The position numbers were made by a program, and so were the translations under genes. Below, piece after piece: positions 6,020 to 49,131 of a DNA stretch of 64,000 nt. A model generated the notes under the pieces. The model ran no database searches, had not been told where the DNA came from, and saw only the letters and a list, made by a program, of their open reading frames with translations. This stretch comes from an uncultured Phaeodactylibacter sp. (GTDB lineage Bacteria; Bacteroidota; Bacteroidia; Chitinophagales; Saprospiraceae), in the NCBI GenBank assembly GCA_913057245.1, contig CAJXNH010000009.1, positions 1 to 64,000 of the forward strand. Direction: 5' to 3'. Each line of letters begins with the position of its first letter. The stretch's first letter is position 1.

Positions 6020-6370
6020 TCAACCCCATATCTCTGGGCAATTAATTTTCATTGCTCTCAGATACGAAAGAAATTGTCCCGCGTGAACAGATTCATGATA
6101 ACCAATTCGTAATAAATATTTCCCAAGGACTTTTTTGTCTCCATTTCCGGGGTGAATAATCTCCGTTTCGTTTAATTCTCTATCCGAAAATTGGCGGACG
6201 CTTTCTAAAAACGCATTTCTATAAGGTTCAGCAAATTCAAGTTCGTCAGCAACGCTAATAAAGGGTCTATTTTTCCAGGGCGTTTGATAATTGGCCAAAG
6301 ACCTGACAACTAAGATGTGAAATATACGGTGAAAACCCCAATAAAAAACAAAAGGATGTGAACTGGACAA
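6020..6370 (-). pseudogene. Truncated DinB-like protein
   Basis: The C-terminal part (GKYLLRIGYHESVHAGQFLSYLR) fits the DinB/YfiT four-helix metalloprotein pattern with H-x3-H spacing. The N-terminal helix with the first metal ligand is missing. The frame ends about 30 bp from the tRNA-terminator copy that marks the element's left attachment site. It could be expressed from the internal ATG, but it lacks part of the fold. Confidence 0.55.
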
Positions 6371-6397
6371 AATAACAGATTAGAGATCAGCGCAAAT

Positions 6398-6471
6398 AAA
6401 AAGCCAGACTCGCAAGGAATCTGGCTTCAAGATAAATCTTTTTGTTTCTTCTTAGTAGCCCCACCAGGACT
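6398..6471. other. Left attachment site (attL)
   Basis: A 74-bp copy of the sequence at 49002-49075 with six substitutions and no gaps. The last 20 bp (6452-6471) are identical and equal the 3' end of tRNA-Arg. The remainder is a copy of the tRNA's terminator hairpin (AAGCCAGA...TCTGGCTT). Because crossover occurs in the identical core, the hairpin copy here is probably the host's original tRNA terminator and the one at the right end was brought by the element. Confidence 0.9.
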
Positions 6472-17566: not shown

Positions 17567-18535
17567 ATGGAATTGAACAACAACCTAGTAACTGATCGAC
17601 CAACAACCCAGCGCAACCTTGCGCAGCACCGGGTAGAAGAAAGCGAAATCAAGTCTGCCGGACAAAAGCCATACATGGAAGCCCCGGAAACAGTGACCCC
17701 GGAAGACATTAAGCTAATGTATGCCGGTGGAATGGTAGACGACCTGCTAAAACAGCGTGTACGCTCAAGCAATAAGCTGTACGGTTTCCAAAAAGCCTAC
17801 GGTCATGTGCACCCCTACACCTGCGAAGAACTTGAAAAGCAGCGCGACGAGTTCCTGGAAGGCTTCGCTAAAGCAAAAACCCGCCTCACCCGCATTGCCT
17901 CCCAACACCCGATGGCGCAGCGGCTCTGCGGCATTAAGGGCTTTACCGCCTACCAATTAGCCTTGGTCATGGCAAAGGTGAAAGACATCGCCCGATTCGA
18001 TACCCCGAGTAAACTGGTGATCTACGCAGGTTGCGGCAGCAAGTACGGCTTGTTCGTCTGCAAGCGCAACCTTAATGCCATCCGGAAAATACACGCCGAG
18101 CAGTACACCGGCGACCCCGATGCCTATCGCCCCTTCGGCTACAATACCGCACTGCAACAACGCCTCTACATCATCACCGATAGCCTTATCCGGGCAAAAG
18201 GCTGGTTCTATGAGTTCTATCAGCGTCAGCGCGAGCGCATCGAGGAAAAGGCAATCAATGAAGACCGCGTATTCATCGCCACAGCTGAGGATGCCAAAGG
18301 CACGAAAATGAAGGCAGGCGAGTATTATATAAAGGGCCGCAACACCCAAAGCCTGAAAGCCTGGAGCAACAGCGGAGCCCGGTGGCGCGTAGCTCGTACA
18401 CTGCTCCACCTGATCTACAAAGAATGGCGCGATTATAAGGGCTTGGATTGCCGGAATCCCTATCCAATTGAGTATCTTGGGCATAGCCAACTGATCACGC
18501 TGGACGATGTGCTGGCGCGGGATGAGAAGAAGTAA
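17567..18535 (+). CDS. Tas-like (TasA-type) IS110/Nop-related RNA-guided protein
   Basis: 322 residues. After a polar N-terminus (about 1-55) comes a helical region with a coiled stretch (about 65-120). Then comes a core matching the C-terminal domain of IS110-family transposases: MAQRLCGIKGFTAYQLALVMAKVKDIARFDTPSKLVIYAG (about 125-170), a helical FYEFYQRQRERIEEKA segment, and NSGARWRVARTLLHLIYKEW near the end. The IS110 N-terminal DEDD nuclease domain is absent, and no HNH or RuvC motif is seen. TIGR-Tas proteins have a Nop domain structurally related to IS110 and box C/D proteins; the nuclease-less form is called TasA. The array begins at this gene's stop codon. The call rests on this combination; RNA-guided DNA binding is inferred. 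Confidence 0.82.
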   Translation: MELNNNLVTDRPTTQRNLAQHRVEESEIKSAGQKPYMEAPETVTPEDIKLMYAGGMVDDLLKQRVRSSNKLYGFQKAYGHVHPYTCEELEKQRDEFLEGFAKAKTRLTRIASQHPMAQRLCGIKGFTAYQLALVMAKVKDIARFDTPSKLVIYAGCGSKYGLFVCKRNLNAIRKIHAEQYTGDPDAYRPFGYNTALQQRLYIITDSLIRAKGWFYEFYQRQRERIEEKAINEDRVFIATAEDAKGTKMKAGEYYIKGRNTQSLKAWSNSGARWRVARTLLHLIYKEWRDYKGLDCRNPYPIEYLGHSQLITLDDVLARDEKK

Positions 18536-19249
18536 TTGAAAATTGGATAGGTACTGCACTAAGTTTTTGAATTGTGATTTTCTTTGTTTCTAAGCATCGG
18601 GTTTGAATTGAGCGTACGGTTGTTACTGAAAAGTTTCTTTGAATTAGCTAAGCACTGGTTTCTGAACTCGTTGTTTGAATTAGAAGTACGCTTGTTACTG
18701 GGTTTTTGGTTTGAATTGGAGTCGCCGTTGTTGCTGATGACAGGTTTTGAATTGGTCTGCTGGTTGTTTCTGACGATCATTTTTGAATTGAGCGTACGAT
18801 TGTTTCTAGTACAACGCTTTGAATTATGCCTTAAATTGTTTCTGGCGTTTGCTTTTGAATTGAGAATATTTTTGTTACTGGAGTTCTTATTTGAATTGAA
18901 TATGGATTTGTTACTGGGTGGCCCGTTTGAATTTGCAAAGAATTTGTTACTGTGTCGCTGATTTGAATTGTTAGTAACGTTGTTTCTAAATGGCGCTTTT
19001 GAATTGACCTTCAGCTTGTTACTATTGGAGTTATTTGAATTGTAATGTTACTAGTTACTGCTTCCAGTTTTTGAATTGTGCCTTAAATGGGTTCTGGCGT
19101 TTGCTTTTGAATTGTGAAAAAAATTGTTACTGCTTGCTAGTTTTGAATTAAAAGTCCCCTTGTTACTATTCTTTGTGTTTGAATTATAATGTATCTGGTT
19201 ACTGATCCGCTTGTTTGAGCTGGAAAAATGTTTGTTTCTGAAATGTAGA
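18530..19249 (+). repeat. TIGR-like array: 19 units of 36 bp with paired 9-nt spacers
   Basis: Nineteen exact 36-bp units start at 18566 and step by 36 without an indel. Each is block 1 (TTTGAATTG; 12 exact, 5 ending A, 2 other variants), a 9-nt variable spacer, block 2 (TTGTTACTG or TTGTTTCTG with close variants), and a second 9-nt spacer. A degenerate extra unit (18530-18565) overlaps the tas stop codon. Units 8 (18818) and 15 (19070) carry identical spacers in both positions; units 2 and 7 share eight of nine bases in the first spacer. The 36-nt period with two 9-nt spacers is the published form of TIGR guide arrays, processed to 36-nt tigRNAs. Block 1 contains TTGAATT, loosely box-C-like, on the plus strand, the same strand as tas, so plus-strand transcription is favoured. 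A small gene starts 5 bp after the last unit. Confidence 0.88.
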
Positions 19250-19253
19250 TGTG

Positions 19254-19418
19254 ATGATGAAAAAACAACAACTATCTGATAGAATTGCCCGCATTACCAA
19301 TATGCTCTGCGACTGTATGTCGGTAAGTGCAGCTGAGGCGGAGCGCGAAAACATCATTAAGCTGATCGAGCAGGGCAAAATCGATCAGGAAATCTATCAA
19401 AAAATCGCCTGGGGATGA
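19254..19418 (+). CDS. Hypothetical small helical protein
   Basis: 54 residues (MMKKQQLSDRIARITNMLCDCM...), helical with CDC in the middle. Begins five bases after the array and ends in an ATGA overlap with the next gene. Its GTGATGATG start region happens to contain a box-C-like GTGATGA. Probably co-transcribed with tas and the array. Confidence 0.5.
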   Translation: MMKKQQLSDRIARITNMLCDCMSVSAAEAERENIIKLIEQGKIDQEIYQKIAWG

Positions 19419-19651
19419 TCAAAGAGCACAAAATGTACAGCGTTATCTGCGACAGGTGCAAGATCAACGCATTCGAGAATGACGAAAACATCGCCTGGGA
19501 AAGCGAAGGTAGTGCCTGGGAAATGGCCTACGCTTCCGGCTGGCAAAAGATCAAAGGCCGGCACTACTGCCCTGGCTGCTATGAAATCAATGATGAGGAT
19601 GAGCTGGTGGTGAAAGTTGGGGTTAGGATGTATTGGACACCTGGCACCTAA
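19415..19651 (+). CDS. Small zinc-ribbon-like protein
   Basis: 78 residues with CDRC near residue 13 and CPGC near 52 (GWQKIKGRHYCPGCYEI), a zinc-ribbon pattern common in phage and integrative-element proteins. The stop codon lies inside the left arm of an attC-like hairpin, as in integron cassettes. Function unknown. Confidence 0.6.
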   Translation: MIKEHKMYSVICDRCKINAFENDENIAWESEGSAWEMAYASGWQKIKGRHYCPGCYEINDEDELVVKVGVRMYWTPGT

Positions 19652-19720
19652 CGTAAGTAATACCCGCAGCCCCGTTTGCACACGTTTGTAGCCGGTTGCG
19701 GGTATTGCTCGTTAGGTGCC
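19643..19720. other. attC-like imperfect hairpin
   Basis: Outer arms GGCACCTAAC (19643-19652) and GTTAGGTGCC (19711-19720) are perfectly complementary and match the integron core consensus RYYYAAC/GTTRRRY (ACCTAAC/GTTAGGT). Inner arms AATACCCGCA (19659-19668) and TGCGGGTATT (19697-19706) pair perfectly across unequal internal spacers of six and four bases, leaving a 28-base loop. Overall size 78 bp is in the attC range. The upstream gene's stop codon falls within the left core. No integron integrase is visible, so it may simply be a transcript-end structure. Confidence 0.45.
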
Positions 19721-19727
19721 TTCGGTC

Positions 19728-19759
19728 AAAAAAAATGCCCCGGACAACCGCCCGAGGCA
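19728..19759 (-). terminator. Rho-independent terminator of the leftward ATPase operon
   Basis: On the minus strand, TGCCTCGG pairs with CCGGGGCA (one G-T wobble) and is followed by eight T. It lies 27 bp after the packaging ATPase stop codon and separates it from the convergent array/zinc-ribbon operon. Confidence 0.8.
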
Positions 19760-19785
19760 TAAACCCCAAAAACCAAATGAAAACC

Positions 19786-20394
19786 TTATAGATCAACTCT
19801 TTTGAATAGCCCGTAGTGGCTGTTATCGCCCCTTGCCTTGGCTGCCCGGAATACGCCATTCACATACTCCTGCATTTCGATTACACGATCAGCACTCGAC
19901 GTGCGTACCTGGCTCTTGTTGACCAAGGCATCCGTAGCGCCAACCCAAACGGTGCTGGTAAAGCCCCACACGCGAGGCGGAACATCCGCCGGCGAGTGCA
20001 CCACAAAGATCATATCCAGCATACGGTGCCGGAAGTCCAGGAGCAGTTGCCGGAAATACTGATTGGAATCGACCGCACTATTGATATAGCCCCGGCAATC
20101 ATCCCATATAATCATGCCATCACGGTAATTGCGATAGATATGCTCAAACACCCGGTTCTTATTCCGACCTTCCTCATACCGCCCGGCAATCACCTGGCGG
20201 ATGCCTTTTTTGAAGGTCATCTTCTTTTTGTGGGTGATGTCCACCTCCGGATAGGGCCGCCAAATTTTGGGCATACCGTTGTAAGTGACCGCCAAGGCCC
20301 TTGCCCCGATGCCTTTTACGATTTTCTCACAGAAAGTAGACTTTCCAGTACCGTTCCTACCGATCACTATTGTGATTTGGGCGTCTCGCTGCAT
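19786..20394 (-). CDS. Packaging-type (A32/FtsK-HerA or Zot-like) ATPase
   Basis: 202 residues. Walker A GRNGTGKS at 12-19, Walker B MIIWDD at 94-99, and the strand VVHSPADVPP at 131-140 in the place of a sensor. Small size with an N-terminal P-loop and no nuclease domain is typical of genome-packaging ATPases of tailless membrane-containing viruses (PRD1, P23-77) and also of filamentous-phage Zot proteins. There is no C-terminal membrane span as in most Zot proteins, which favours the packaging role. Last gene of a four-gene leftward operon with overlapping ends. Confidence 0.7.
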   Translation of the reverse strand: MQRDAQITIVIGRNGTGKSTFCEKIVKGIGARALAVTYNGMPKIWRPYPEVDITHKKKMTFKKGIRQVIAGRYEEGRNKNRVFEHIYRNYRDGMIIWDDCRGYINSAVDSNQYFRQLLLDFRHRMLDMIFVVHSPADVPPRVWGFTSTVWVGATDALVNKSQVRTSSADRVIEMQEYVNGVFRAAKARGDNSHYGLFKRVDL

Positions 20395-22577: not shown

Positions 22578-23270
22578 ATGTCAATAATCGACTGTTCACC
22601 AACCACAAGAAAAATGGTTCGACGCACGAAACTTCCGGCTAATCTCGCCGCTGCTCCTGCCACCAACGGTGCTTCTACGCAGAAAACCGTTGAGGCGCAG
22701 AGCAATATGATCGGCCGCCCGACTGTCAATGTCAGCGAACGCGCTGACAATCGGGTTATCCAGTCAGTTCAGACTGATCCTTACTTCGCAATCAAGGTTT
22801 CCACGAAAGATGCGGTAGAGCCGCAGCAGGTTATCCTGTTTGATGGCTCACAAGGCTATCAGCTGGGCTACAGCCAATTTCAAGGCCCTGATGTGGAAAT
22901 CTCTGGCCTGACTTCGCACTATCAGTTCATTCTGAACGATATGGTGCACAACAGCTCCTACCTGGATATGCTGAAAATGCGTATCACCGAGCACGCCAAC
23001 GAGAGCAACAACTGCTGCGCTACCAACGCGCTTGAGCAGTATGCCCGCCCGGTCGAAATCTATGATGCAAGCAAAGGTTCCAAGCCACGCCTGCTCAAGA
23101 CGATCTTTCCGGACATGGGTGTGCACGAAGGGCAATACCAGCTCAACATCAACACCTTTGCGAACGACATCATCATCACCAACCGGACTGCCTTCGTTTA
23201 TATGCAGGAGCCGGGTATCACAGTCACCTGGGGCTTCTACCAGGTAGCTGAGTTGGGCCGTAAGCAATAA
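22578..23270 (+). CDS. Candidate major capsid protein (beta-rich)
   Basis: 230 residues, no signal peptide or membrane span. The N-terminal 50 residues are polar and probably flexible. From about residue 60 the sequence is dominated by short beta strands (YFAIKVSTKDAVEPQQVILFDG, YQLNINTFANDIIITNRTAFVYMQEPGITVTWGFYQVAEL), consistent with a jelly-roll. First gene after a strong terminator and leader, as expected for a highly expressed structural gene. Size and position suit one of two single-jelly-roll capsid proteins as in sphaerolipovirus-type phages. No sequence similarity is recognised, so this is inference. Confidence 0.5.
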   Translation: MSIIDCSPTTRKMVRRTKLPANLAAAPATNGASTQKTVEAQSNMIGRPTVNVSERADNRVIQSVQTDPYFAIKVSTKDAVEPQQVILFDGSQGYQLGYSQFQGPDVEISGLTSHYQFILNDMVHNSSYLDMLKMRITEHANESNNCCATNALEQYARPVEIYDASKGSKPRLLKTIFPDMGVHEGQYQLNINTFANDIIITNRTAFVYMQEPGITVTWGFYQVAELGRKQ

Positions 23271-25960: not shown

Positions 25961-25996
25961 AAACAGCTACATAGCCCTTGGCTGTGTGGCTGTTTT
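25961..25996 (+). terminator. Hairpin between capsid and lysis genes
   Basis: AAACAGC-ACA-AGCC pairs with GGCT-TGT-GCTGTTT with single-base bulges, ending in TTTT. It probably reduces transcription from the structural genes into the lysis genes that start 6 bp later. Confidence 0.65.
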
Positions 25997-26001
25997 CGCT
26001 T

Positions 26002-26655
26002 ATGAAGAACTGGAAAAAATACACCATCATCGGAGTGTTCGTGCTCATTTTGCTGCTGGTTTCAACAACTGCAGTAGCGAAAGCCCGGCAACTCGACAAC
26101 AAGCTATTCATGCGCAAAGACATCTGGATAAATGCGGCGGAAGATGCCTGGCAAAAGCTGGATAATGTGCAGCGGGATAGCGTCGAGCAGATTCTACGGG
26201 CATTCCGGGAATACGGTGATGGTGATTACAGAAAGCTGGTTTACATCCTGGCTACCGCCTGGCATGAAAGCAAGCTGAAGCCCGTGCGGGAGCGCCGGGC
26301 AGGCAGCAGCCAAACGTGGCTGCGGCAGTTGCAAGACCGGTACTGGTCTTCGGGCTATTACGGCCGGGGCTTTGTGCAGCTGACCTGGGAGAGCAATTAC
26401 AAGAAGATGAGCGAGTTCCTGGGCGTAGACCTGGTGGGCAACCCTGACCTGGCACTGGAGCCCCGCTATGCGGCGGACATTCTGGTTTACGGTATGATGA
26501 ACGGCGAGTTCACCCGCCGGTCCCTGAGCCGTTACATCAATATAGTGCAGACGGACTACTACAACGCCCGAAGGGTAGTCAACGGCACCGACCGGGCAAG
26601 CCTGATAAAGGATTATGCAGTATTGCTACAAACCGAAATCAGAAAGGTAGTATGA
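26002..26655 (+). CDS. Membrane-anchored GH19-like muramidase/endolysin
   Basis: 217 residues from the ATG at 26002. N-terminal span (KYTIIGVFVLILLLVSTTAVA), then a domain of the phage GH19/chitinase-like lysozyme family: VYILATAWHESKLKPVRE (catalytic Glu candidates), YYGRGFVQLTWESNYKKMSEFLGVDLVGNPDLALEPRYAADILVYGMMNGEFT. It should cleave peptidoglycan glycan strands in the periplasm. Membrane anchoring recalls the virion-bound lytic enzymes of PRD1-type phages used during entry. Overlaps the amidase gene by four bases. Confidence 0.85.
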   Translation: MKNWKKYTIIGVFVLILLLVSTTAVAKARQLDNKLFMRKDIWINAAEDAWQKLDNVQRDSVEQILRAFREYGDGDYRKLVYILATAWHESKLKPVRERRAGSSQTWLRQLQDRYWSSGYYGRGFVQLTWESNYKKMSEFLGVDLVGNPDLALEPRYAADILVYGMMNGEFTRRSLSRYINIVQTDYYNARRVVNGTDRASLIKDYAVLLQTEIRKVV

Positions 26656-27221
26656 AGCCTTGGCAAAAATACCTGATGATCGCTATGGTGACGCTACTCC
26701 TGCTCTATCTGATCGGTCAGATCGTCCGCCCAAGAGCCTACGGTATTCCGATTACGAATGTGGTCTACAGATTGAAGCGCCACTGGTGGAAGACCTACGA
26801 CACACGCGACTTGTCGCAGATTGACAGCGTAGTGATTCATCATAGCCTGACGACTTCGGGTACTTCCCAGGCTTACGCGAAGTACCACGTAGAGGAAAAT
26901 GGCTGGCCAGGCATCGGCTACCATTACGTGATCGGTAAGGATGGCAGTATTGAGCAGACCCAGCTTTTGAAAACGGTCAGCAACCATACGAGCGGAGAGA
27001 ACACCCGCAGTGTGGGCATTTGCCTGACCGGCAACTATGACATACAGCAGCCGCCCCTTGAGCAAGTCGATGCGGCGGTGAAGCTGATACGATACCTGCA
27101 AGACCGGCTTGGCCGGCAGTTGCGCATTACCGGGCATAACGAGCACAGCTCGAAAAGCTGCCCAGGAAGCAACTTGGATGTGGATGAAATTGAAAACAGC
27201 GTACGAAACATCGCAGCATGA
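26652..27221 (+). CDS. Membrane-anchored N-acetylmuramoyl-L-alanine amidase
   Basis: 189 residues. N-terminal span (YLMIAMVTLLLLYLIGQIV), then an Amidase_2/PGRP domain: IDSVVIHHSLTTSGT (first Zn His), WPGIGYHYVIGKDGSIEQTQ, NTRSVGICLTGNYD, and ITGHNEHSSKSCPG (second His, and Cys as third ligand). It cleaves the sugar-peptide bond of peptidoglycan. Together with the preceding muramidase it gives two complementary wall activities, both tethered to membrane. Confidence 0.92.
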   Translation: MKPWQKYLMIAMVTLLLLYLIGQIVRPRAYGIPITNVVYRLKRHWWKTYDTRDLSQIDSVVIHHSLTTSGTSQAYAKYHVEENGWPGIGYHYVIGKDGSIEQTQLLKTVSNHTSGENTRSVGICLTGNYDIQQPPLEQVDAAVKLIRYLQDRLGRQLRITGHNEHSSKSCPGSNLDVDEIENSVRNIAA

Positions 27222-36222: not shown

Positions 36223-37035
36223 ATGACCAATCGCCAGGCATACGAACTCAACAGGCAGATCGAAGGGCTGATAGATCAGAAGGGCATGGCCCCGGCTGCA
36301 TACACAGCCGACGAGAAAGCCATGCTGGCCCAATACAGCGGCTACGGCGGGCTCGATCAATTCCTGGAAGAATCTAACGCGGGGATCCTTTACGAATTTT
36401 TCACGCCTACCCCTATCGTCAAAAAGATGTGGGGCTTGGCGCTCAAGCTTGGCTTTAAAGGCGGCGAAGTCCTGGAACCGGCAGCAGGCAACGGCGTATT
36501 CCTTGCCCAGGTGCCTGACCGGCAATACCTGGAACGAGATGCCGTAGTGACCGCTATCGAGCCGCAGCAATACAGTTATGCTATTCTCCGCATTCTCTAC
36601 CCCGAAGCCCGGGTAATTCAGGAAGTCTTCGAACAGCAGTTCATTGACGAACGCAGAAATGAGAGCGTACGCGGGAAGGTCCAAGCAAAGTATGACCTGG
36701 TTATTGGCAACCCACCCTACGGCTCTATCCGAGGACTGACCGGCGGCAAGTACATAAACATGGGCGAAAAGCAGTACACCAAAGCCAACGCCTACGACGA
36801 ATACTTCATACGGCGCGGCATCGACCTGCTGAAGCCCGGCGGCATCCTGATCTACATCATCGGCTCAGAAGTAGCCAACGGCGGTGTGCCATTCCTGCAA
36901 CGTGGTACCACTAAAGCAAAGGAAGACATCGCAGAGAAGGCGGTTCTTTCTGACGCATATCGGCTACCCAACGGCGTATTCGACCGCACCGACGTACTGA
37001 GCGACATCGTTTGTTTCACCAAAAAAGCAGCGTAA
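36223..37035 (+). CDS. DNA adenine N6-methyltransferase, polyvalent-protein type
   Basis: 270 residues. N-terminal LAQYSGYGGLDQFLEE is the signature that precedes methyltransferase domains in large anti-restriction proteins of phages and conjugative elements. SAM motif I is EVLEPAAGNGVFL, and catalytic motif IV is DLVIGNPPYGS (NPPY, so adenine N6). The domain is complete. Methylation of element DNA against host restriction is the likely role. It is the first of a four-gene set that elsewhere occurs fused. Confidence 0.85.
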   Translation: MTNRQAYELNRQIEGLIDQKGMAPAAYTADEKAMLAQYSGYGGLDQFLEESNAGILYEFFTPTPIVKKMWGLALKLGFKGGEVLEPAAGNGVFLAQVPDRQYLERDAVVTAIEPQQYSYAILRILYPEARVIQEVFEQQFIDERRNESVRGKVQAKYDLVIGNPPYGSIRGLTGGKYINMGEKQYTKANAYDEYFIRRGIDLLKPGGILIYIIGSEVANGGVPFLQRGTTKAKEDIAEKAVLSDAYRLPNGVFDRTDVLSDIVCFTKKAA

Positions 37036-37274
37036 TGGATGCACAAGACCTACTGAACGACCTAAAAATAGCGATCAACGAGCAACTGGACCAGTGCGAG
37101 GAAGATGAAACCGGCACCTTCACACCAAAGGTCTGCAGCTTCATCAGCAAACCTGGCGGACGGGAAAAGATCGTGCAAATCGTGGTCAACTATGTTGCCC
37201 AGGAAGGCATGACTATTGCTGAGGCTATCGACCACATTGAGCGCGACTTCAACGATAACCTGATGGAGCATTAA
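37035..37274 (+). CDS. Hypothetical small helical protein
   Basis: 79 residues (MDAQDLLNDLKIAINEQLDQCEEDETGTFTPKVCSFISKPGGREKIVQIVVNYVAQEGMTIAEAIDHIERDF). The start overlaps the previous stop and the end overlaps the next start, indicating coupled translation within the methyltransferase-helicase block. Not recognised. Confidence 0.55.
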   Translation: MDAQDLLNDLKIAINEQLDQCEEDETGTFTPKVCSFISKPGGREKIVQIVVNYVAQEGMTIAEAIDHIERDFNDNLMEH

Positions 37275-39136
37275 TGATGATAGCCCTTGGCAAAAATATC
37301 ACCCTATCCATGCCCAACGGTGAAAAGCGCCGTGGGCAATTCGCTATTGTGGAGCTGACTGACGTATTAGCCAGCCACAACGAATTAACCTTTGTTCCCA
37401 GCAAAGGCTACCCGGTAAATGACCGTGGGCAAAATATAAACGACCGGAATTATGAGGATGATGTAGCGGCCCAGGAGCGTGTACGGGATAACGCCCGGAA
37501 CCTTGACCCCTATCGCCTAATCACAACCAGCCGTACACCATCCGGCACACCAATAGTAGCTGGAGAGCAGATCGACGGTAAATGGATTGTTGTTTCCGGC
37601 AATAACCGTACCATGAGCACTAAGATTGCTGAACGGATGTACGGCGATAACTACCGCGAATACGTAGAGGCACTTTGCGGAGAACTTGAATCATTCGGGT
37701 TTTCCAGAACAGACAAAAAGGAAAGGATAGACTGCCACAAAGGGCAGTTAATATACCTGCCAACCGGCGATGATTACAGTATTAACAACGATGCTTATTA
37801 TTTCAAGCTCCCCTTTCTGATCAGAATCGACTACGACTTCCCTGCCTTCCAGACCCAGGAGCTGGCGAAGTACAACCAAAGTACCATGAAGGGCAAGCGG
37901 GCCGTGGATAAGACCATAGAGCGCAGTAACAGCCTACGGGAAAACCCACTATGCAAAACCCGCATACCGGCAATGATCGACGAGTACGAGCGCATGAGCG
38001 ACTTCTATGCCGATCGGAATGCCCAAAAAAGGATGCTCGAAGCCTTGCTCCAGTGCAACATCATTACCGAGCAGTCTATTCCGGAATACTTCGATGACGG
38101 CTACTTCACCAATGCAGGAAAAGAACTGGTAGAATCTGTACTGGCCGGCGTTGTCTTGGAAAAAGAAGCCCTGAAAGCTGCCGAGAGAGACGGCATCAAG
38201 CAAGCCCGGCGCGTGATCGTGTACGCCATGCCTGTACTGGTAGCCAATAGCGCCTTGCCGGGCAGTGGCAACCTTATCCCACACATCAACAACGCCATCC
38301 TATACCTGAACGAAATGAAGTCCAGCGGGCTCCCATTCGATCAGTACATTAATCAAGGCGCACTATTCTCCGAAAAGGAATGGCACCCGTGGGCCATCTA
38401 TCTAAGCCGGTTAATGTCCCAGGGGCAGCGCAAGTTCAAATGGGCAATTAAGGCATTCAATGAGAGCGTGAAAAGGAATACCGGGGCTGCTTTATTCTCT
38501 GATCAGAATGTCACGCCTGATGAAGCTTTCCAGGCTTATGTAGTTGACCACATACCGGCGGATGAGGCGAAGCTGATCCAACTTCACGTGAAGCAGATAC
38601 CGTCCAGGATAACGTACTATGAAAAGACCTTCATGGAGGAATTTGGCATATCCCATCCTGTCGCACATGAGATATGGCTACGGGCTATGGATGAATACGG
38701 CCGCCCCCTTGATGATGTGAGCCGGGCAGAGTTAATAAGGCGCGGCAGAGAGCAGTTGGAAGCTTACAGGTGGGAAAAGACCCCGGAAGGCCAGGCGTAT
38801 GTGAAGCAGTTGGAGAAGGAAATATTGGGGCAGGATGAAAGCCGCTACCCTGACTGGCTATTTGTCGGCTTCATGGGAGCCAGTACCGTCTATGCCGACC
38901 GGCGCAGGCAGAAAGGCGGCGATTACATCCAGGTTGCACACCTGAACGAAAGCACTGGCAAAGTTAACCGGCTAATCAAGCCCGGCGACAAAGACTACCG
39001 GGAAGATTATGAGCTGGCTTACCGGCTGGCAGAAGAAGATGCAGCCGGGGAGAAGCCGAAAAGCAGCGCCAAATCCAAGATCATGTTGGCGAAAGCCAAG
39101 AAAAAAAAGAAGCTCAAACTCCTACAACTGGCATAG
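37274..39136 (+). CDS. DdrB/ParB-like polyvalent-type protein
   Basis: 620 residues. The N-terminal region (about 20-130: FAIVELTDVLASHNE...YPVNDRGQNINDRNYED...LDPYRLITTSRTPSGTPIV..KWIVVSGNNRTMSTKIAERM) matches the DdrB-like ParB-superfamily domain found in polyvalent proteins of phages and conjugative elements. The rest is helical. The last residues (KSKIMLAKAKKKKKLKLLQLA) are nearly identical to the end of the following SNF2 protein, suggesting a shared targeting tail. Likely acts on element DNA together with the helicase. Confidence 0.7.
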   Translation: MMIALGKNITLSMPNGEKRRGQFAIVELTDVLASHNELTFVPSKGYPVNDRGQNINDRNYEDDVAAQERVRDNARNLDPYRLITTSRTPSGTPIVAGEQIDGKWIVVSGNNRTMSTKIAERMYGDNYREYVEALCGELESFGFSRTDKKERIDCHKGQLIYLPTGDDYSINNDAYYFKLPFLIRIDYDFPAFQTQELAKYNQSTMKGKRAVDKTIERSNSLRENPLCKTRIPAMIDEYERMSDFYADRNAQKRMLEALLQCNIITEQSIPEYFDDGYFTNAGKELVESVLAGVVLEKEALKAAERDGIKQARRVIVYAMPVLVANSALPGSGNLIPHINNAILYLNEMKSSGLPFDQYINQGALFSEKEWHPWAIYLSRLMSQGQRKFKWAIKAFNESVKRNTGAALFSDQNVTPDEAFQAYVVDHIPADEAKLIQLHVKQIPSRITYYEKTFMEEFGISHPVAHEIWLRAMDEYGRPLDDVSRAELIRRGREQLEAYRWEKTPEGQAYVKQLEKEILGQDESRYPDWLFVGFMGASTVYADRRRQKGGDYIQVAHLNESTGKVNRLIKPGDKDYREDYELAYRLAEEDAAGEKPKSSAKSKIMLAKAKKKKKLKLLQLA

Positions 39137-39137
39137 C

Positions 39138-42100
39138 ATGGTAGAAGCAATCATCAACGACAACTGGTATATCCAGAACCCGGAAAAGATACTCGGCGAG
39201 CCGTACCAAACCACCGGCCGGTTCTCCGATAATGTCACGAAGTACCGTGGCAGCATCGAGGACGTGATGCGCATACCCGCCGTTGATTATGAGGCAACCG
39301 ACATGCTATCGCCCTATGTGTCGAGCGAACACACCGACACCCAGGCAAAAGACCTGCACGGTGTACAGACGAGCAACATCGAACGGGCCCTAAAAAAAGC
39401 CAAAAAGGAAAAGAGCGCCCGTGATCAGGCAAAAGCCGGTGAGCTCGATCTGATAACCTTTGATGAGATCGACCAGCAGTACAACAAGCACCTGACGGAC
39501 GATCAAAAGCAGGTATTCGTATGGTATCAGAAAAAGGTTTTGAACCGCCCAATGGAAGGCGGATGGGCGAAGTACGACAACTCATCCGCTATTTCGGCTA
39601 AGGTTGTACCACTCGAATGGGTAAAGGAAGGATTGGTCTACTGGTTTGTCGATGGATTCCTACCTGCTTTTATCTACCTATCCGGCAACATCGCCGACCG
39701 CCGTGCGAGGCTTTCTGAAGACCGCGAGAAGATCGAGAGTATGCCGCAAGGCAAGACGATCTACCAAAAACAGATCGAAGCCCTGGACAAAGTGTGGAGC
39801 AACGTAGCCCAGCGCCGTAAGCGGCTGGATGCTGAAAAGTTTGAAGACCGGCTCATCATCAAGCCCGTAAGCAACCTGGCAAAGGAGTATAAGATCAAAC
39901 ATCTGAACGGTGACGTAAAGCTCAAAGCCCAAAAGCGCCGAAACGGGCAGATCGACTTCACCGAAAAACTACAAAGTGCCTGGAAAAGAGACTTGGAAAT
40001 AGCCGTCAATCTTCAGGAGGCTTTTGTACTCTGGATGAGCGAGAACGCCCGGGAACTGGATATCCGGCGTGGACTGGACTGGAAAGAGATCGCCGAGCTG
40101 TACATCATGAACCGTAAGCGACGCAAGGATGAAAAGGTCCAGGACTTCCAGCGCAATAAGTCTGCAGCCCAGCAGGAAGGTATTCGCCTATTCTCTGACT
40201 TCCTGGCCAAAGCCATTACCGATGAAGACCGGGAAGGCATCGAACGGATATGGAATGAGCGTTATAACAGCGAAGTACCGGTTGATCTGGACCAGGTGCC
40301 TATTGGATTCACCATGGCCCGGTTCTATAACGGTATGGAAATGGACATCCGCCCGGAAAAGCGCGAAGCTGTGGCTTTCGCCCAAATAAGTGGTGCCGGT
40401 TGCCTGGCATACGGCGTAGGCTTGGGCAAGACCTGGTGCGCGATCTTCACCGCTGCCCAATTTCTTGAAAACGGATGGTGCCAGCGTCCTTTCTTTGTAC
40501 TGCCCAACCAGGTGTACAAGCAATTTATGGGCGAGTGCAAGGGCATCCTGCCGCAAATCGACCAAAACGACCTATACAACCTCAGCGAGAAATACCTCGA
40601 CAACATCCCCGAAGAAGGGCAGCTCCCTGCCGGCACAATTTCGTTTTTCACCTATGAAGGCTTCAAGCGTGTTGGTCTGGACACCGGCTCCGAAGGTGCC
40701 TTCTTTGCCGAGCTGATGTCTATCCTGGACCAGGACGACACCCCTGTATCGGGAAAAGGTGCCGACAAAGCCTACGAACGCCTGAAAAAAAAGGTGAGCG
40801 GCATCATCGGGAAATCTCAGATGGGAACCCGTGCGAATATTGACAGCATGGGGCTTGATATGATGATGGTAGACGAAGCGCACAGTGCCAAGAAGGTCTT
40901 TACCACCGTTAAAGCAGAGCGGGAAGAAAACCTGGGCAACGAGAAGAACGTCAAGCGGTATGACATTTCCAGCGGGGAGCCGTCGGGCATGGGATTAAAG
41001 ACCTTTATGGTATCGCAGTACATACAAAAGCGTAACACGACGGGCAACGTCCTGCTTTTGACAGCAACCCCATTCACCAACTCGCCAATGGAAATCTACT
41101 CTATGATAAGCTTGGTGGGCTTGCGTTACCTCCAGGAATTAGGGCTGAAGAACCTGAAGGACTTCTTCGATCAGTTCGTGAACACGTCAAACGAGCTGGT
41201 ATTCACTATTGCGCTCAACCCCGAATTTAAGGACGTATTTACCGGCTTTTCAAACCTTGTAGCCCTGCAATCCATTATCCGACGGTTCTTCCTCTATAAG
41301 CAATCGACCAAGAACCTGAAACGCCCGAATAAGATCGTTCTGCCCCTGCGCCGAAAGGTAGTTAACGGTATGGAGATCGACCTGGGCGATAACGAGACGA
41401 TTGAAACGGTGCTGCCATTCAATCCCTATCAGAAGGACCGGATAACGGATATACTGGCGTATGCCTCCGGGGAAATCAGTGTGAATGAGGCTTGCGAAAA
41501 CGCAAAGGCAGATGATGAGGAAAACGCTGCAGGTGCGCGTATGCTCCGGGCAGCAGGAATGGCCAGGAAGGTTGCCTTTTCGCCTTTCCTCCTGGACTGC
41601 GATTCAGACACCCGCAATCCCGGTTCACCAAAGGCTTTCATCGAAAGCTCTGCGAAGCTCGAATTCATAGCCGGGTGCATCCGTAGCGTGAAAGAGTACC
41701 ACGACCGGCAGGGTTCCCCTATGTCCGGGCAAATCATCTACAGCAATATGGGCGTTGACTTCTTCCCGTTGTTGCGCCAATATCTGATCGACAAAGTGGG
41801 ATTCCAGCCGCACGAAGTGGGCATTATCGTGAGCGAAAGCCGCATGAAGCAAATGGGCTTCAAAGACAAGCGGACAGTTCAGAATGCCTTCCTGGGCCGT
41901 CGCTATAACCCGGTTACCCGAGACTATGAGGACATCCCGCACGAATACCGGTGCAAAGTCCTGATCGGCAGCTCTACCATCCGGGAAGGCATCAACCTGC
42001 AACGCTACGCGTCCTGCCTGTACATCCTGGAATTGCCCTGGAACCCTACTGACGTGAACCAACTCGAGGGCCGTCTGTGGCGGCAGGGTAACATACACCG

Positions 42101-43274
42101 CAGCGTTCGCATCGTCAATCCGCTGATGGAGGATAGTATGGATATCTTCATGTTCCAAAAGCTGGAAGAAAAGACCGCTCGCATCAATGCTATTTGGGAC
42201 TTCGACGGCAACCAAAGCACCCTGGACACCCGCGACTTTGACCCGGCAGAGCTGAAGTACGTCCTGATCAAAGACCCCCGCCGTATTGCTGATCTGGAAG
42301 CCCAGGAACGCGGCTTGGAGATCGAGGACGAATTGACGACCATCGAAGCCCAGCTGAACATCCTGCAAGACCTCAATAGAACCCGTTCCTATGTCTTCTC
42401 AAAACTCGAAGATATTGCCAAGGCAGTGTCTTACTACCGCGACCTGCCCCCAGGCGCAGAGAATGACCCCGTGGAGCTACGGCGGCAGGTATCTTACATT
42501 CTCCGGGCCAAAAAGCTGAAAGACGGCCGACTGGTGGATGAGTTGAAAGCGAGTGTTTCACAAGGCTATAAGTATAGCTATAGTTATCGAAACCCTTACG
42601 ACGACGCATGGATTAGCTCTGCTGGTATTTCTGCTCCCTATTGGTACTCCGATTGGAAAAAGAGCGTAGCCAAGTACACGCAGGCAGTCAACGATATTTT
42701 GAAGCCCAAAGGTCTGGACGATTCCGAAGAAGCCATCAAAGAGGCCATTCGGCAGCTCCAGGAGGAAAAGACCAAAAAGGAGGAAGAGAAAAAAGACCTG
42801 AATAAGGAGGAACGCCTCAAAGAAAGAGCGGCCGAGATCACAGCAAAAAAGGAAGCAGAAGGCATCGCCCCTGCTTCGGTCCAAGAACGTATCAGCCAGT
42901 TTGCGCAGCTGAACTACCTGCTGGATGATCTTCGCGTAGAGGAACCTCAAGAAAGCCTAGCCAGAGAAGCCCAAGATGCCCCCTATCGCCCGGGCGAAAC
43001 GGTAAGGTACAATGACGGCAAAGCCAGGGTAGAGCAATCTTTCCTGGGCAACAATGGGAAATACTACTACCTGGTTAAACAGACCTCCTATCTGGAACTT
43101 GTCATTGAAGCAGAGCTATCGCCGAACAACAAAACACAGGAAAAACGCCTACAATCCAGGCAGATGTCAGGCACAAAGAAAGCCATGCCTCCGAAGGCTA
43201 ATGCCAAGACCAGAATACTGCTTGCAAAGGCGAAAAAACGTAAGAAGTTAAAACTGCTGCAGCTCGCAGCCTAA
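39138..43274 (+). CDS. SNF2-family DNA helicase/translocase, anti-restriction (DarB-like) type
   Basis: 1378 residues from the ATG at 39138; the longer open frame overlaps the previous gene. Walker A in GCLAYGVGLGKTWCA (about 427), DEAH box in MMMVDEAHSAKK (about 579), motif III LLLTATPFTN (about 640), motif VI NPTDVNQLEGRLWRQGNIHR (about 970-990). A charged coiled-coil follows (about 1185-1240), then the tail KTRILLAKAKKRKKLKLLQL. Large SNF2 proteins next to a methyltransferase occur in phage P1 DarB and in integrative elements, where they protect incoming DNA. Function here is inferred from that context. Confidence 0.88.
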   Translation: MVEAIINDNWYIQNPEKILGEPYQTTGRFSDNVTKYRGSIEDVMRIPAVDYEATDMLSPYVSSEHTDTQAKDLHGVQTSNIERALKKAKKEKSARDQAKAGELDLITFDEIDQQYNKHLTDDQKQVFVWYQKKVLNRPMEGGWAKYDNSSAISAKVVPLEWVKEGLVYWFVDGFLPAFIYLSGNIADRRARLSEDREKIESMPQGKTIYQKQIEALDKVWSNVAQRRKRLDAEKFEDRLIIKPVSNLAKEYKIKHLNGDVKLKAQKRRNGQIDFTEKLQSAWKRDLEIAVNLQEAFVLWMSENARELDIRRGLDWKEIAELYIMNRKRRKDEKVQDFQRNKSAAQQEGIRLFSDFLAKAITDEDREGIERIWNERYNSEVPVDLDQVPIGFTMARFYNGMEMDIRPEKREAVAFAQISGAGCLAYGVGLGKTWCAIFTAAQFLENGWCQRPFFVLPNQVYKQFMGECKGILPQIDQNDLYNLSEKYLDNIPEEGQLPAGTISFFTYEGFKRVGLDTGSEGAFFAELMSILDQDDTPVSGKGADKAYERLKKKVSGIIGKSQMGTRANIDSMGLDMMMVDEAHSAKKVFTTVKAEREENLGNEKNVKRYDISSGEPSGMGLKTFMVSQYIQKRNTTGNVLLLTATPFTNSPMEIYSMISLVGLRYLQELGLKNLKDFFDQFVNTSNELVFTIALNPEFKDVFTGFSNLVALQSIIRRFFLYKQSTKNLKRPNKIVLPLRRKVVNGMEIDLGDNETIETVLPFNPYQKDRITDILAYASGEISVNEACENAKADDEENAAGARMLRAAGMARKVAFSPFLLDCDSDTRNPGSPKAFIESSAKLEFIAGCIRSVKEYHDRQGSPMSGQIIYSNMGVDFFPLLRQYLIDKVGFQPHEVGIIVSESRMKQMGFKDKRTVQNAFLGRRYNPVTRDYEDIPHEYRCKVLIGSSTIREGINLQRYASCLYILELPWNPTDVNQLEGRLWRQGNIHRSVRIVNPLMEDSMDIFMFQKLEEKTARINAIWDFDGNQSTLDTRDFDPAELKYVLIKDPRRIADLEAQERGLEIEDELTTIEAQLNILQDLNRTRSYVFSKLEDIAKAVSYYRDLPPGAENDPVELRRQVSYILRAKKLKDGRLVDELKASVSQGYKYSYSYRNPYDDAWISSAGISAPYWYSDWKKSVAKYTQAVNDILKPKGLDDSEEAIKEAIRQLQEEKTKKEEEKKDLNKEERLKERAAEITAKKEAEGIAPASVQERISQFAQLNYLLDDLRVEEPQESLAREAQDAPYRPGETVRYNDGKARVEQSFLGNNGKYYYLVKQTSYLELVIEAELSPNNKTQEKRLQSRQMSGTKKAMPPKANAKTRILLAKAKKRKKLKLLQLAA

Positions 43275-43285
43275 ACCAATAAGCT

Positions 43286-45951: not shown

Positions 45952-46971
45952 ATGACTTACCAACTTCCTCTCTTTGAGATCGAAGAACGCCCTGTTGTTG
46001 TACCAACAGAAGTTGAAGAACTGCTTTATGATAGCGATACAGAAGTCCTTGTTGCCTTTTCCGGCGGCAAGGATAGTGTTGCAATGGTCTTATACCTGCT
46101 TGACCTGGGCATTCCCAAAGAGCGCATTATCCTGCACCACCATGAGGTAGACGGGCGCGGTGAAGACCTGTTTGATTGGCCGTGCACTCCAAGCTACTGT
46201 GAAGCGTTCGCAGAAGCTTTCAACCTGCCTTTGGTTTTTTCCTGGAGAGAAGGCGGCATCTTACGTGAAATGTATCGACAAAATGAAGGATTGCAGGATG
46301 TTAGATATAGGACTGCCGACGGTGATGAAGCCCTATTGAAAAGCCAGCCTGGTTCTTCAACCAGGATGAAATTTCCTGCTGTAGCTGCTGATCTACGCAC
46401 ACGGTGGTGTAGCTCGGTTGTGAAAATAGATGTGCTTTCCAGGGTGATAGCCAGTAGTTATCCAAAAGGCGGGCAACTAATTATCTGCACCGGTGAACGT
46501 AGGGAAGAAAGTGCAGGCCGGGCAACATATAAGACGCACGAGAAGTACCGTGCCTCTACAAAGAAGCGCACAGCAATCCAGTGGAGGCCAGTGATTGATT
46601 TCCGGGAAAAAAAGGTGTGGGCGCTGTACGAAAAATACAAGGTTCAGCCGCACCCATGCTATATGCTTGGCTGGTCACGTTGCTCTTGCCAAATTTGTAT
46701 ATTCTCATCGCCTAATACTTGGGCTGCTATCGACGAAATTGCCCCTTGGAAGATTGACCGACTGGAAGAGATCGAGAACGACTTGGACCATACCTTATAC
46801 AATAAGTTACGCATACGTCAGAAAGTTAGAAAGGGACGAAGCTTCATTCCTCGTGAAATGCTGGAGCGATGGAAAGGCGAAGCAATGGGCGAGTTTATTA
46901 GCCCTATTTTTGTGGACAAATGGAATCAGCCGGCAGGCGCATTTGCATCGGAGGAATCTGGTGCCGTATAA
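45952..46971 (+). CDS. PAPS reductase/DndC-family ATP pyrophosphatase
   Basis: 339 residues. PP-loop motif VLVAFSGGKDSVAMVLYLL (about 29-47), then HHHEVDGRGEDLFDWPCTPSYC, RTRWCSSVVKIDVL and IICTGERREESAGRA, and a Cys cluster CYMLGWSRCSCQICIFSS (about 235-253) that could bind an iron-sulphur cluster. This is the phage-type phosphoadenosine-phosphosulfate reductase family, whose real substrate in phages is often unclear; DNA phosphorothioation and tRNA thiolation enzymes are related. It stands between the polyvalent block and the integrase. Confidence 0.8.
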   Translation: MTYQLPLFEIEERPVVVPTEVEELLYDSDTEVLVAFSGGKDSVAMVLYLLDLGIPKERIILHHHEVDGRGEDLFDWPCTPSYCEAFAEAFNLPLVFSWREGGILREMYRQNEGLQDVRYRTADGDEALLKSQPGSSTRMKFPAVAADLRTRWCSSVVKIDVLSRVIASSYPKGGQLIICTGERREESAGRATYKTHEKYRASTKKRTAIQWRPVIDFREKKVWALYEKYKVQPHPCYMLGWSRCSCQICIFSSPNTWAAIDEIAPWKIDRLEEIENDLDHTLYNKLRIRQKVRKGRSFIPREMLERWKGEAMGEFISPIFVDKWNQPAGAFASEESGAV

Positions 46972-47708: not shown

Positions 47709-47736
47709 AGCCCTGGGCGATTGCCTGGGGCTTTTT
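47709..47736. terminator. Bidirectional rho-independent terminator
   Basis: AGCCCTGGGC pairs with GCCTGGGGCT around a GATT loop, with five T on the plus side. It sits between the convergent 47361 gene and the integrase gene. Confidence 0.8.
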
Positions 47737-48893
47737 CATTTGAAGAAATCCAGCTTTTTAGCCAGAATCGCGCTATCCATACCACTGGCCCGCAGGTATA
47801 TTTCTACTGTACTCAATTTTTTCCATCCCCCAATATCTGCGATAGTCTTCAGAGAAGCCCCCATCAGTCGCAGGTTTGTCGCCCCTGATCTGCGAGCTGT
47901 ATGAAAGGTCACAAATTGGCATTTAGGCCCTGTTTGGCTGCCTTGCGTGACTACCTGTGTAATGCCAGCCATACTCGCAATTTGCTTGAGCAACCGATTA
48001 GCGACCTGGTTGGCGGTAAAATTGAAATTGAAATTATGAGCCTGACAGATGGACCATGCTGCTTTTTTGACCGGCACAGTTGCTGGAGTGTTCTCTTTTA
48101 CGCTATTGTAAAGCAGGTAAGTGTCTCCATTCTGCACAAAGAAGTTCGACCTGGAAAGCCGTACAACATCAGAAAACCGCATAACGAAGTAATAAGCAAT
48201 CAAAAAACGGTCACGCTCCCGCATGAGTGCTGGCATCGAGGAAAGGTCCAGCATTTCGATTCGTCCAATTTCTTCCTGAGTGAGATATATTTTTGTTGAT
48301 TTCTGATTTTCTCTAGCCTTAAACCAAGGCTGCAGGTATGCATCATTATCGTGCAACTCCTTTTCTTTTCCCAGCCGCATTACTTTTTTGAGGACTCGCA
48401 AGTGTTTTGCCAGCCCACTCCAGTTTGCTCCATTGCTCGTCACCCAGTCCGAAAAACCAAAGTAGAACTGCCTGTTTATATCAGACCATAAAATATCATC
48501 TTTTCCTGAATAGGCTGCATATTCCTTTAGCCGCTTGACTGCAGTTCTGTAGCCTTTTACCGTACTCGGCTTTAATCCGTGATTAGAATCTAAGTAATCT
48601 TCCAGAAAAGCGAGCACACTCCCCTTTTCTTCTTTTTTCCCGTAATGTTCGAGATTGCCCCCATTGAGCAAAAAAGCTTCAACCTTTCGTTTATGAAGCA
48701 ACAGCTTTCTGTTGTAGGCTTTTGACAGAGCGTAGGAGCTTTTTACTTCACCTTTGGACTTATCCCAAAACTTTTGGGGTATGGAAAGCCCGGTTGGTAA
48801 GTAACGTTGTTTGCCTTCATACGATACGTATAGCCGAATACTGGTTTCGCCATTTTTCTTCCGATGGCCATTGAGGATATTTGTCAGATTCAC
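47736..48893 (-). CDS. Tyrosine recombinase/integrase of the element
   Basis: 385 residues. N-terminal arm-binding fold of Bacteroidota type (NGETSIRLYVSYEGKQRYLPTGLSIPQKFWDKSKG, about 13-50), SAM-like core-binding domain (about 95-190), and catalytic domain with Arg in FVMRFSDVVRLSR, FHTARRSGATNL (HxxR), GGWKKLSTVEIYLRAS (Trp in place of the second His, then Tyr nucleophile). All essential residues are present. It lies next to attR/tRNA-Arg and should catalyse integration and excision at the tRNA 3' end. Confidence 0.95.
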   Translation of the reverse strand: MNLTNILNGHRKKNGETSIRLYVSYEGKQRYLPTGLSIPQKFWDKSKGEVKSSYALSKAYNRKLLLHKRKVEAFLLNGGNLEHYGKKEEKGSVLAFLEDYLDSNHGLKPSTVKGYRTAVKRLKEYAAYSGKDDILWSDINRQFYFGFSDWVTSNGANWSGLAKHLRVLKKVMRLGKEKELHDNDAYLQPWFKARENQKSTKIYLTQEEIGRIEMLDLSSMPALMRERDRFLIAYYFVMRFSDVVRLSRSNFFVQNGDTYLLYNSVKENTPATVPVKKAAWSICQAHNFNFNFTANQVANRLLKQIASMAGITQVVTQGSQTGPKCQFVTFHTARRSGATNLRLMGASLKTIADIGGWKKLSTVEIYLRASGMDSAILAKKLDFFK

Positions 48894-49001: not shown

Positions 49002-49075
49002 AAAAAGCCAGACCCGCAAGGTATCTGGCTTTAAGATAAATTTTTTTGTTTCCTTTTAGTAGCCCCACCAGGACT
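49002..49075. other. Right attachment site (attR) with element-supplied tRNA terminator
   Basis: Matches 6398-6471 at 68 of 74 positions with no gaps; the 20-bp core 49056-49075 is identical and forms the 3' end of tRNA-Arg. The adjoining hairpin AAGCCAGA/TCTGGCTT is the tRNA terminator copy carried by the element, so the tRNA keeps both its sequence and transcript end after integration. The distance between cores gives an element of 42,604 bp. Confidence 0.9.
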
Positions 49076-49131
49076 CGAACCTGGATCTTAGGTTCCGGAA
49101 ACCTACATACTATCCCTTGTACTATGGAGCC
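49060..49131 (-). tRNA. tRNA-Arg(CCG)
   Basis: Cloverleaf read on the minus strand: acceptor GGCTCCA pairs with TGGGGCT (two wobbles), D-stem GTAC/GTAT, anticodon stem TAGGT/ACCTA with loop TTCCGGA (anticodon CCG), short variable loop, and T-arm CCAGG-TTCGAGT-CCTGG. CCA is not encoded. This is the insertion target of the element; it remains intact. Confidence 0.93.

What the first reader, a model, noticed from the sequence alone, without database searches (positions are those of the whole stretch)
17567..19249. TIGR-Tas (TasA-type) RNA-guided system inside an integrated element
Seen: 19 units of exactly 36 bp, each conserved 9-mer / variable 9-mer / second conserved 9-mer / variable 9-mer, starting at the stop codon of a gene whose product has an IS110-like C-terminal core but no nuclease domain. 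Known: TIGR arrays, reported from phages and parasitic bacteria, give 36-nt RNAs with two 9-nt spacers bound by Tas proteins whose Nop domain is related to IS110 and box C/D proteins. Inference: this is a nuclease-less TasA system, probably used by a temperate phage for guided DNA binding, silencing or competition rather than cutting.
Basis: partly seen in the sequence, partly recalled or inferred. Interest (0 to 1): 0.96.

Follow-up and report, generated by a model that had tools for sequence, protein, structure and literature searches.

The report
Phage-borne TIGR-TasA RNA-guided system
An integrated virus-like element carries a complete but nuclease-free version of TIGR-Tas, a recently described RNA-guided DNA-binding system, with one guide-binding protein gene followed directly by 20 short two-part guide units; it is a new, very divergent member of a known kind, and its natural targets are still unknown.

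Summary
From 18530 to 19249 there are 20 head-to-tail units of exactly 36 nt: 9-nt edge repeat TTTGAATTR, 9-nt spacer, 9-nt loop repeat TTGTTWCTR, 9-nt spacer. The first edge is 5'-truncated at the tasA stop codon, and a 3'-truncated edge ends at the start codon of the next ORF. The 322-aa protein matches NCBIfam TIGR_Tas_endo over the whole model (6e-21, 75 bits; below the curated cut-off of 100). The best match among IS110-like proteins in 395 genomes of the same phylum is 46.8 bits. Its model fits solved TasH and TasR (Z about 16.7) better than IS110 (about 13) or Nop5/Prp31 (about 7). No HNH or RuvC is present, so it is TasA-type. It lies in a 42.6-kb element inserted at a tRNA-Arg, with a tyrosine integrase and lysis genes. 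No close relative was found in the collections searched. No target exceeded chance in the window, 2.7 Mb of the host genome, TasH phage loci, or (one unit only) IMG/VR. Its role (non-cutting silencing of rival DNA) is inference.

The parts
17567..18535 (+). tasA: 322-aa solo Nop-domain Tas protein (no nuclease domain)
   Evidence: NCBIfam NF052498 TIGR_Tas_endo 6.3e-21, residues 56-288 to model 7-215/215; PHROG 4285 1.1e-11; AlphaFold model matches TasH/TasR
18530..18565 (+). TIGR unit 1 with 5'-truncated edge (AATTG), overlapping the tasA stop codon region
18566..19249 (+). TIGR units 2-20: edge TTTGAATTR / spacer A (9) / loop TTGTTWCTR / spacer B (9), exact 36-nt period
19250..19254 (+). 3'-truncated terminal edge TGTGA (four of five bases match TTTGA)
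   Evidence: sequence
18818..18853 (+). Unit 9: both spacers identical to unit 16 (19070-19105), while the loop and the last edge base differ
19254..19420 (+). 54-aa ORF whose start codon overlaps the terminal truncated edge; possibly co-transcribed
   Evidence: no + strand terminator-like site between array and ORF
6452..6471 (+). attL-like 20-nt core TTAGTAGCCCCACCAGGACT (within a 140-nt 80% repeat, 6332-6471)
49056..49075 (+). attR-like 20-nt core, overlapping the 3' end of tRNA-Arg(CCG)
49059..49131 (-). tRNA-Arg (CCG), insertion site
47736..48893 (-). tyrosine recombinase / integrase
   Evidence: phrog_1 1.3e-28; XerD-type 2.2e-13
25978..27221 (+). two lysis genes: endolysin (25978-26655) and amidase (26652-27221)
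   Evidence: PHROGs 2.3e-26 and 1.6e-27

Best explanation
This is a TIGR-TasA system carried by an integrated virus-like element. Shown by sequence and profiles: a solo Nop-domain Tas protein is encoded immediately upstream of a 20-unit dual-repeat TIGR array. Inferred from the family (PMC12045711): the tasA-array transcript is cut within each edge repeat into 36-nt tigRNAs; a TasA dimer holds one tigRNA by its edge and loop repeats; spacer A pairs with one DNA strand and spacer B with the other, opening an 18-bp target (spacer A followed by the reverse complement of spacer B, gap 0-2 bp) and bending it without cutting. My most likely role, marked as inference: RNA-guided roadblock or silencing of other mobile elements that compete for the same host (about 0.4). 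Alternatives are control of host or own genes, or a partner-dependent effector.
For: Array anatomy matches the published definition: two alternating 8-12-nt repeats, 9-nt spacers, 5'- and 3'-truncated edges. Edge and loop share their end motifs (T first; YTR last), matching the published rule that the box motifs covary between edge and loop. Tas profile full length at 6.3e-21 with IS110 at only 5.5e-4. In 395 genomes of the phylum the next-best matches, IS110-like, reach 46.8 bits against 75.8. Fold: TasH 9vzx Z 16.8, TasR 9mty Z 16.7, IS110-type 12.8-13.2, Nop5/Prp31 about 7; Foldseek E 1.4e-6. A segment of TasR 9mty is the only PDB hit of the sequence on its own (E 0.07). Related tas genes in IMG/VR carry 36-nt arrays of the same layout. 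The array RNA is less structured than shuffles (z +1.8), as the paper says of unprocessed arrays. Open frames in the array are within chance.
Against: The Tas profile score is below the curated cut-off (75 against 100 bits; the model is named for endonucleases). The structure model has modest confidence (pLDDT 62.8) and was built with TasH rows, which biases it towards that fold. Box motifs differ from the UG/CCA of TasR. The protein is unique among everything searched, so no comparative test of selection was possible. There is no expression evidence. No target was found, so the proposed role is untested. No rho-independent terminator was seen after the array, unlike the typical published array.
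Confidence: 0.88

Rival explanations
1. A decayed or derived IS110-type transposase with a coincidental or bridge-RNA-like repeat tract: the protein would act in transposition, not in guided binding with an array.
For: Weak IS110 matches over the shared Nop core: Pfam Transposase_20 0.007, NCBIfam IS110 5.5e-4, plasmid IS110 genes at E 0.02-0.8.
Against: The Tas profile is about 56 bits better than IS110; the IS110 background in 395 genomes peaks at 46.8 bits against 75.8; no DEDD/RuvC N-terminus; the adjacent array has exact TIGR geometry; one copy in the genome.
Confidence: 0.04
2. The array is a repeat-protein coding region (12-aa repeats, period divisible by 3).
For: Period 36 is a multiple of 3; an ORF of 125 aa (18584-18961) is open.
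Against: Every frame on both strands has stops; open stretches this long are not unusual (44% of spacer-shuffled arrays have one of 125 aa or more); the repeats are conserved base by base while the spacers vary freely.
Confidence: 0.01
3. Same system, different purpose: TasA with its tigRNAs regulates host or element genes (RNA-guided repression) or assists the integrase by bending DNA, rather than competing with other elements.
For: TasA has no nuclease; the paper proposes blocking of transcription or replication, or DNA bending for integration, as alternatives; the array sits inside a run of small element genes.
Against: No spacer pair matches the element, its att sites, or 2.69 Mb of the host genome above re-paired controls. 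Mismatched targets and the about 23% of the assembly not scanned remain possible; the genome is only 62% complete.
Confidence: 0.3
4. A non-functional relic of a TIGR system.
For: No target found; sequence strongly diverged.
Against: Intact 322-aa ORF; 18 consecutive edges with 8 invariant bases and no indel in 720 nt, a degree of order that drift would break.
Confidence: 0.06

Closest known systems
TIGR-TasA with dual-repeat array (FpTIGR, Flavonifractor plautii; PMC12045711)
   Same: Solo Nop-domain protein without nuclease; downstream dual-repeat array; 36-nt units with two 9-nt spacers; truncated edges at both ends are typical of the family.
   Different: 20 units (published: most often 5-15); no terminator seen after the array; another host and element.
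TIGR-TasH (Salicola phage CGphi29 and IMG/VR relatives; PDB 9vzx, 9w02-04, 21kl)
   Same: Nop core (20-25% identity), fold (Z 16.8), adjacent 36-nt arrays.
   Different: TasH has an N-terminal HNH; the window protein does not, and has insertions at about 158-191 and 235-265. TasH arrays use repeats such as AAGCGAGCCA/AAGACAACCA and 8-nt spacers.
TIGR-TasR (PDB 9mty)
   Same: Nop fold (Z 16.7), 9-nt spacers.
   Different: TasR has RuvC and UG/CCA box motifs; here no RuvC and TT/YTR-type ends.
IS110 / IS621 transposases and bridge RNA
   Same: Shared Nop-like RNA-binding core (Z about 13).
   Different: IS110 has a DEDD catalytic domain and one bridge RNA, and is mobile; here no catalytic domain, and an array of guides.

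Membership tests
TIGR-Tas (dual-repeat) | Array of two alternating 8-12-nt repeats separated by about 9-nt spacers, constant unit length | tested here: met
   20 units, 9-9-9-9, 36 nt, no indels
TIGR-Tas (dual-repeat) | Array adjacent to a Nop-domain Tas gene | tested here: met
   Array begins at the tasA stop codon region
TIGR-Tas (dual-repeat) | Tas protein sequence family | tested here: met
   NF052498 full length 6.3e-21, 75 bits; below the curated cut-off of 100 but well above the IS110 background of 46.8 bits or less
TIGR-Tas (dual-repeat) | Nop fold as in TasR/TasH | tested here: met
   Z 16.7-16.8, Foldseek 1.4e-6 to 4e-5; model pLDDT 62.8 and MSA made of TasH rows, so supportive rather than independent
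TIGR-Tas (dual-repeat) | 5'- and 3'-truncated edge repeats at the array ends | tested here: met
   AATTG at 18534-18538, TGTGA at 19250-19254
TIGR-Tas (dual-repeat) | Box motifs shared between edge and loop | tested here: met
   Both repeats start with T and end in (T/C)T(G/A); letters differ from UG/CCA
TIGR-Tas (dual-repeat) | Rho-independent terminator after the array (typical, not universal) | tested here: not met
   No + strand terminator-like site at 19250-19900; a 54-aa ORF starts at once
TIGR-Tas (dual-repeat) | Processing to 36-nt tigRNAs and guided DNA binding | not testable with these tools
   Needs small-RNA sequencing and binding assays
TasA subtype | No HNH or RuvC nuclease | tested here: met
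   No nuclease domain in Pfam/NCBIfam; HNH residues of TasH absent in the alignment
IS110 transposase | DEDD/RuvC catalytic domain and IS110 family score | tested here: not met
   IS110 score 19 bits against cut-off 140; no N-terminal catalytic domain match
CRISPR array | Single repeat of about 25-36 nt with spacers of similar size | tested here: not met
   Two alternating 9-nt repeats, 9-nt spacers

The most novel reading that the evidence does not exclude
A deeply diverged TasA lineage, with its own box motifs, carried by a non-tailed integrated virus and used as a non-cutting, array-programmed silencer of rival elements; the pair of units with identical spacers but drifted repeats (9 and 16) would reflect selection to keep hitting one target.
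Probability: 0.15. Interest if true: 0.75.

Novelty: new member of a known kind. Interest (0 to 1): 0.48.

Why it matters
TasA is the commonest but least understood Tas type, and the Science paper says its role and targets are unknown. This is a compact, intact locus with clear ends: one gene and 20 guides, exactly fitted between a stop and a start codon, in a defined element inside a genome. It could be moved whole into a laboratory strain to test processing and DNA binding. It extends the family to a lineage with different repeat motifs and no close relatives in the collections searched.

Tried and rejected
Self-targeting: no spacer pair matches the window better than re-paired controls. Host targets: 2.69 Mb of 3.50 Mb scanned; 1 hit with 1 mismatch and 12 with 2, re-paired controls 0-2 and 6-15. 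IMG/VR scan for the duplicated target of units 9/16: 2 hits, and 2 for the reversed-geometry control, so no signal. Targets of 115 TasH units among TasH phage loci and the window: same as shuffled pairs. DNA-pattern scans for the array: 0 in IMG/VR, 5 single matches in genome contigs, all without an array. Relatives by protein: none in IMG/VR, genome contigs, 148 relatives or 398 genomes of the order; a mixed TasA/TasH alignment gave one usable pattern and no relative. The putative capsid protein model was worthless (pLDDT 34) and its family has no PDB match. A search centred on a clostridial locus, meant to reach the published TasA, was not possible.

Full report
Observation. The stretch 18530-19249 holds 20 head-to-tail units of exactly 36 nt, each a 9-nt repeat TTTGAATTR, a variable 9-mer, a second 9-nt repeat TTGTTWCTR and another variable 9-mer. 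Eight of nine edge positions are invariant in all 18 internal copies; spacer columns carry 0.03-0.47 bits. TTTGAATT occurs only once elsewhere on the + strand of the window.

Which repeat is the edge. Units 9 and 16 have identical spacers on both sides of the TTGTT..CT repeat, and the array begins and ends with parts of TTTGAATTR. Both facts make TTTGAATTR the edge and TTGTTWCTR the loop. The two repeats share their ends (T first, YTR last), as expected if each binds the same site on the two halves of a symmetric dimer.

Protein. The 322-aa product matches the NCBIfam model TIGR_Tas_endo from end to end (6.3e-21, 75 bits; cut-off 100), against 19 bits for IS110. As a yardstick, the same model run over 395 genomes of the phylum gives at most 46.8 bits apart from this protein; I read those hits as IS110-like. 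All TasH relatives taken from IMG/VR match the model. Pfam gives only a sub-threshold Transposase_20 hit. HNH residues of TasH are absent and no RuvC or other nuclease was found, so the protein is TasA-type. An AlphaFold model (pLDDT 62.8) fits TasH and TasR at Z 16.8 and 16.7, IS110 at about 13 and Nop5/Prp31 at about 7. Caution: the alignment used for the model contained TasH sequences; the profile result does not depend on it.

Positive control from relatives. Loci related to the Salicola phage TasH (22% identical to the window protein) were fetched from IMG/VR. They carry arrays with the same 36-nt period next to tas, up- or downstream. Near-identical unit pairs occur there as well, so unit duplication is a general feature.

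Context. The system lies in an element bounded by a 20-nt direct repeat (6452-6471 and 49056-49075, inside a 140-nt 80% repeat) that overlaps the 3' end of a tRNA-Arg, with a tyrosine integrase beside it. The 42.6 kb include an endolysin and an amidase, a small P-loop ATPase with a weak terminase-like match, many short proteins with membrane-anchor-like segments (reading), a DarB-like methyltransferase/helicase pair and a Zeta-toxin/RelA-SpoT protein. No portal or tail protein was recognised among the proteins scanned, so a tailless virus is possible but not shown. A 230-aa protein (22578-23270) recurs with neighbouring small proteins in two other genomes of the family, three loci in all; the short loci returned (about 3.5 kb) show no array.

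Rarity. No relative of TasA was found in IMG/VR, genome contigs, phages (beyond the weak TasH match), plasmids (only IS110-like fragments), 148 close relatives or 398 genomes of the order. The pattern scans reach close relatives only, so distant TasA proteins may have been missed.

Targets. From the 8-nt 3' overhang and cut-site text of the paper I derived the target as spacer A followed by the reverse complement of spacer B, gap 0-2. No excess over re-paired spacers was seen in the window or in 2.69 Mb of the host genome. In IMG/VR, where only the units 9/16 target was tried, the hits equalled the reversed-geometry control. The assembly is 62% complete and unnamed, and short guides give little power against large collections.

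Mechanism. Shown: gene, array, order, ends, fold family. Inferred from the experiments in PMC12045711 on FpTasA, TaTasR and SpTasH: processing into 36-nt tigRNAs, dimer binding, dual-strand recognition of an 18-bp site. Inferred further and weakly: the outcome is blocking or silencing of rival DNA, since there is no nuclease. The array fits with no spare bases between the tasA stop and the start codon of a 54-aa ORF, with no terminator-like site between them, so guides and mRNA probably share one transcript.

Comparison and novelty. It meets every sequence-level feature of a dual-repeat TIGR-TasA locus except the typical terminator. Differences are of degree, not kind: 20 units, divergent box motifs, insertions in the protein, no close relatives. 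Hence a new member of a known kind.

Noticed in passing
6332-49075: 42.6-kb integrated element at tRNA-Arg(CCG) with att-like direct repeats and a tyrosine integrase; lysis genes and a small P-loop ATPase but no recognised portal or tail gene, so possibly a tailless membrane-containing virus.
   Followed up: partly
22578-23270: Conserved 230-aa protein with no family or PDB match (capsid candidate), followed by small membrane-anchored proteins; relatives at 35-55% identity in two other genomes of the family (L192-L194).
   Followed up: partly
36223-45910: DarB-like antirestriction block: N6-methyltransferase, SNF2-type helicase, then an 874-aa protein joining a Zeta-toxin domain and a RelA/SpoT domain.
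   Followed up: partly
45952-46971: PAPS-reductase/DndC-like protein near the integrase end of the element.
   Followed up: no
55350-57217: Outside the element: cytosine methyltransferase with an adjacent type II restriction enzyme (PADLOC 1e-103).
   Followed up: no
18602-18637 and 18782-18817; 19034-19069 and 19178-19213: Half-related units: units 3 and 8 share spacer A at 8 of 9 bases, units 15 and 19 at 7 of 9, with unrelated spacer B.
   Followed up: partly
L038:3767/3803, L040:7039/7219, L041:7053/7161: Paired units with identical or near-identical double spacers also occur in TasH arrays; near copies could address variants of one target or be drifted duplicates.
   Followed up: partly
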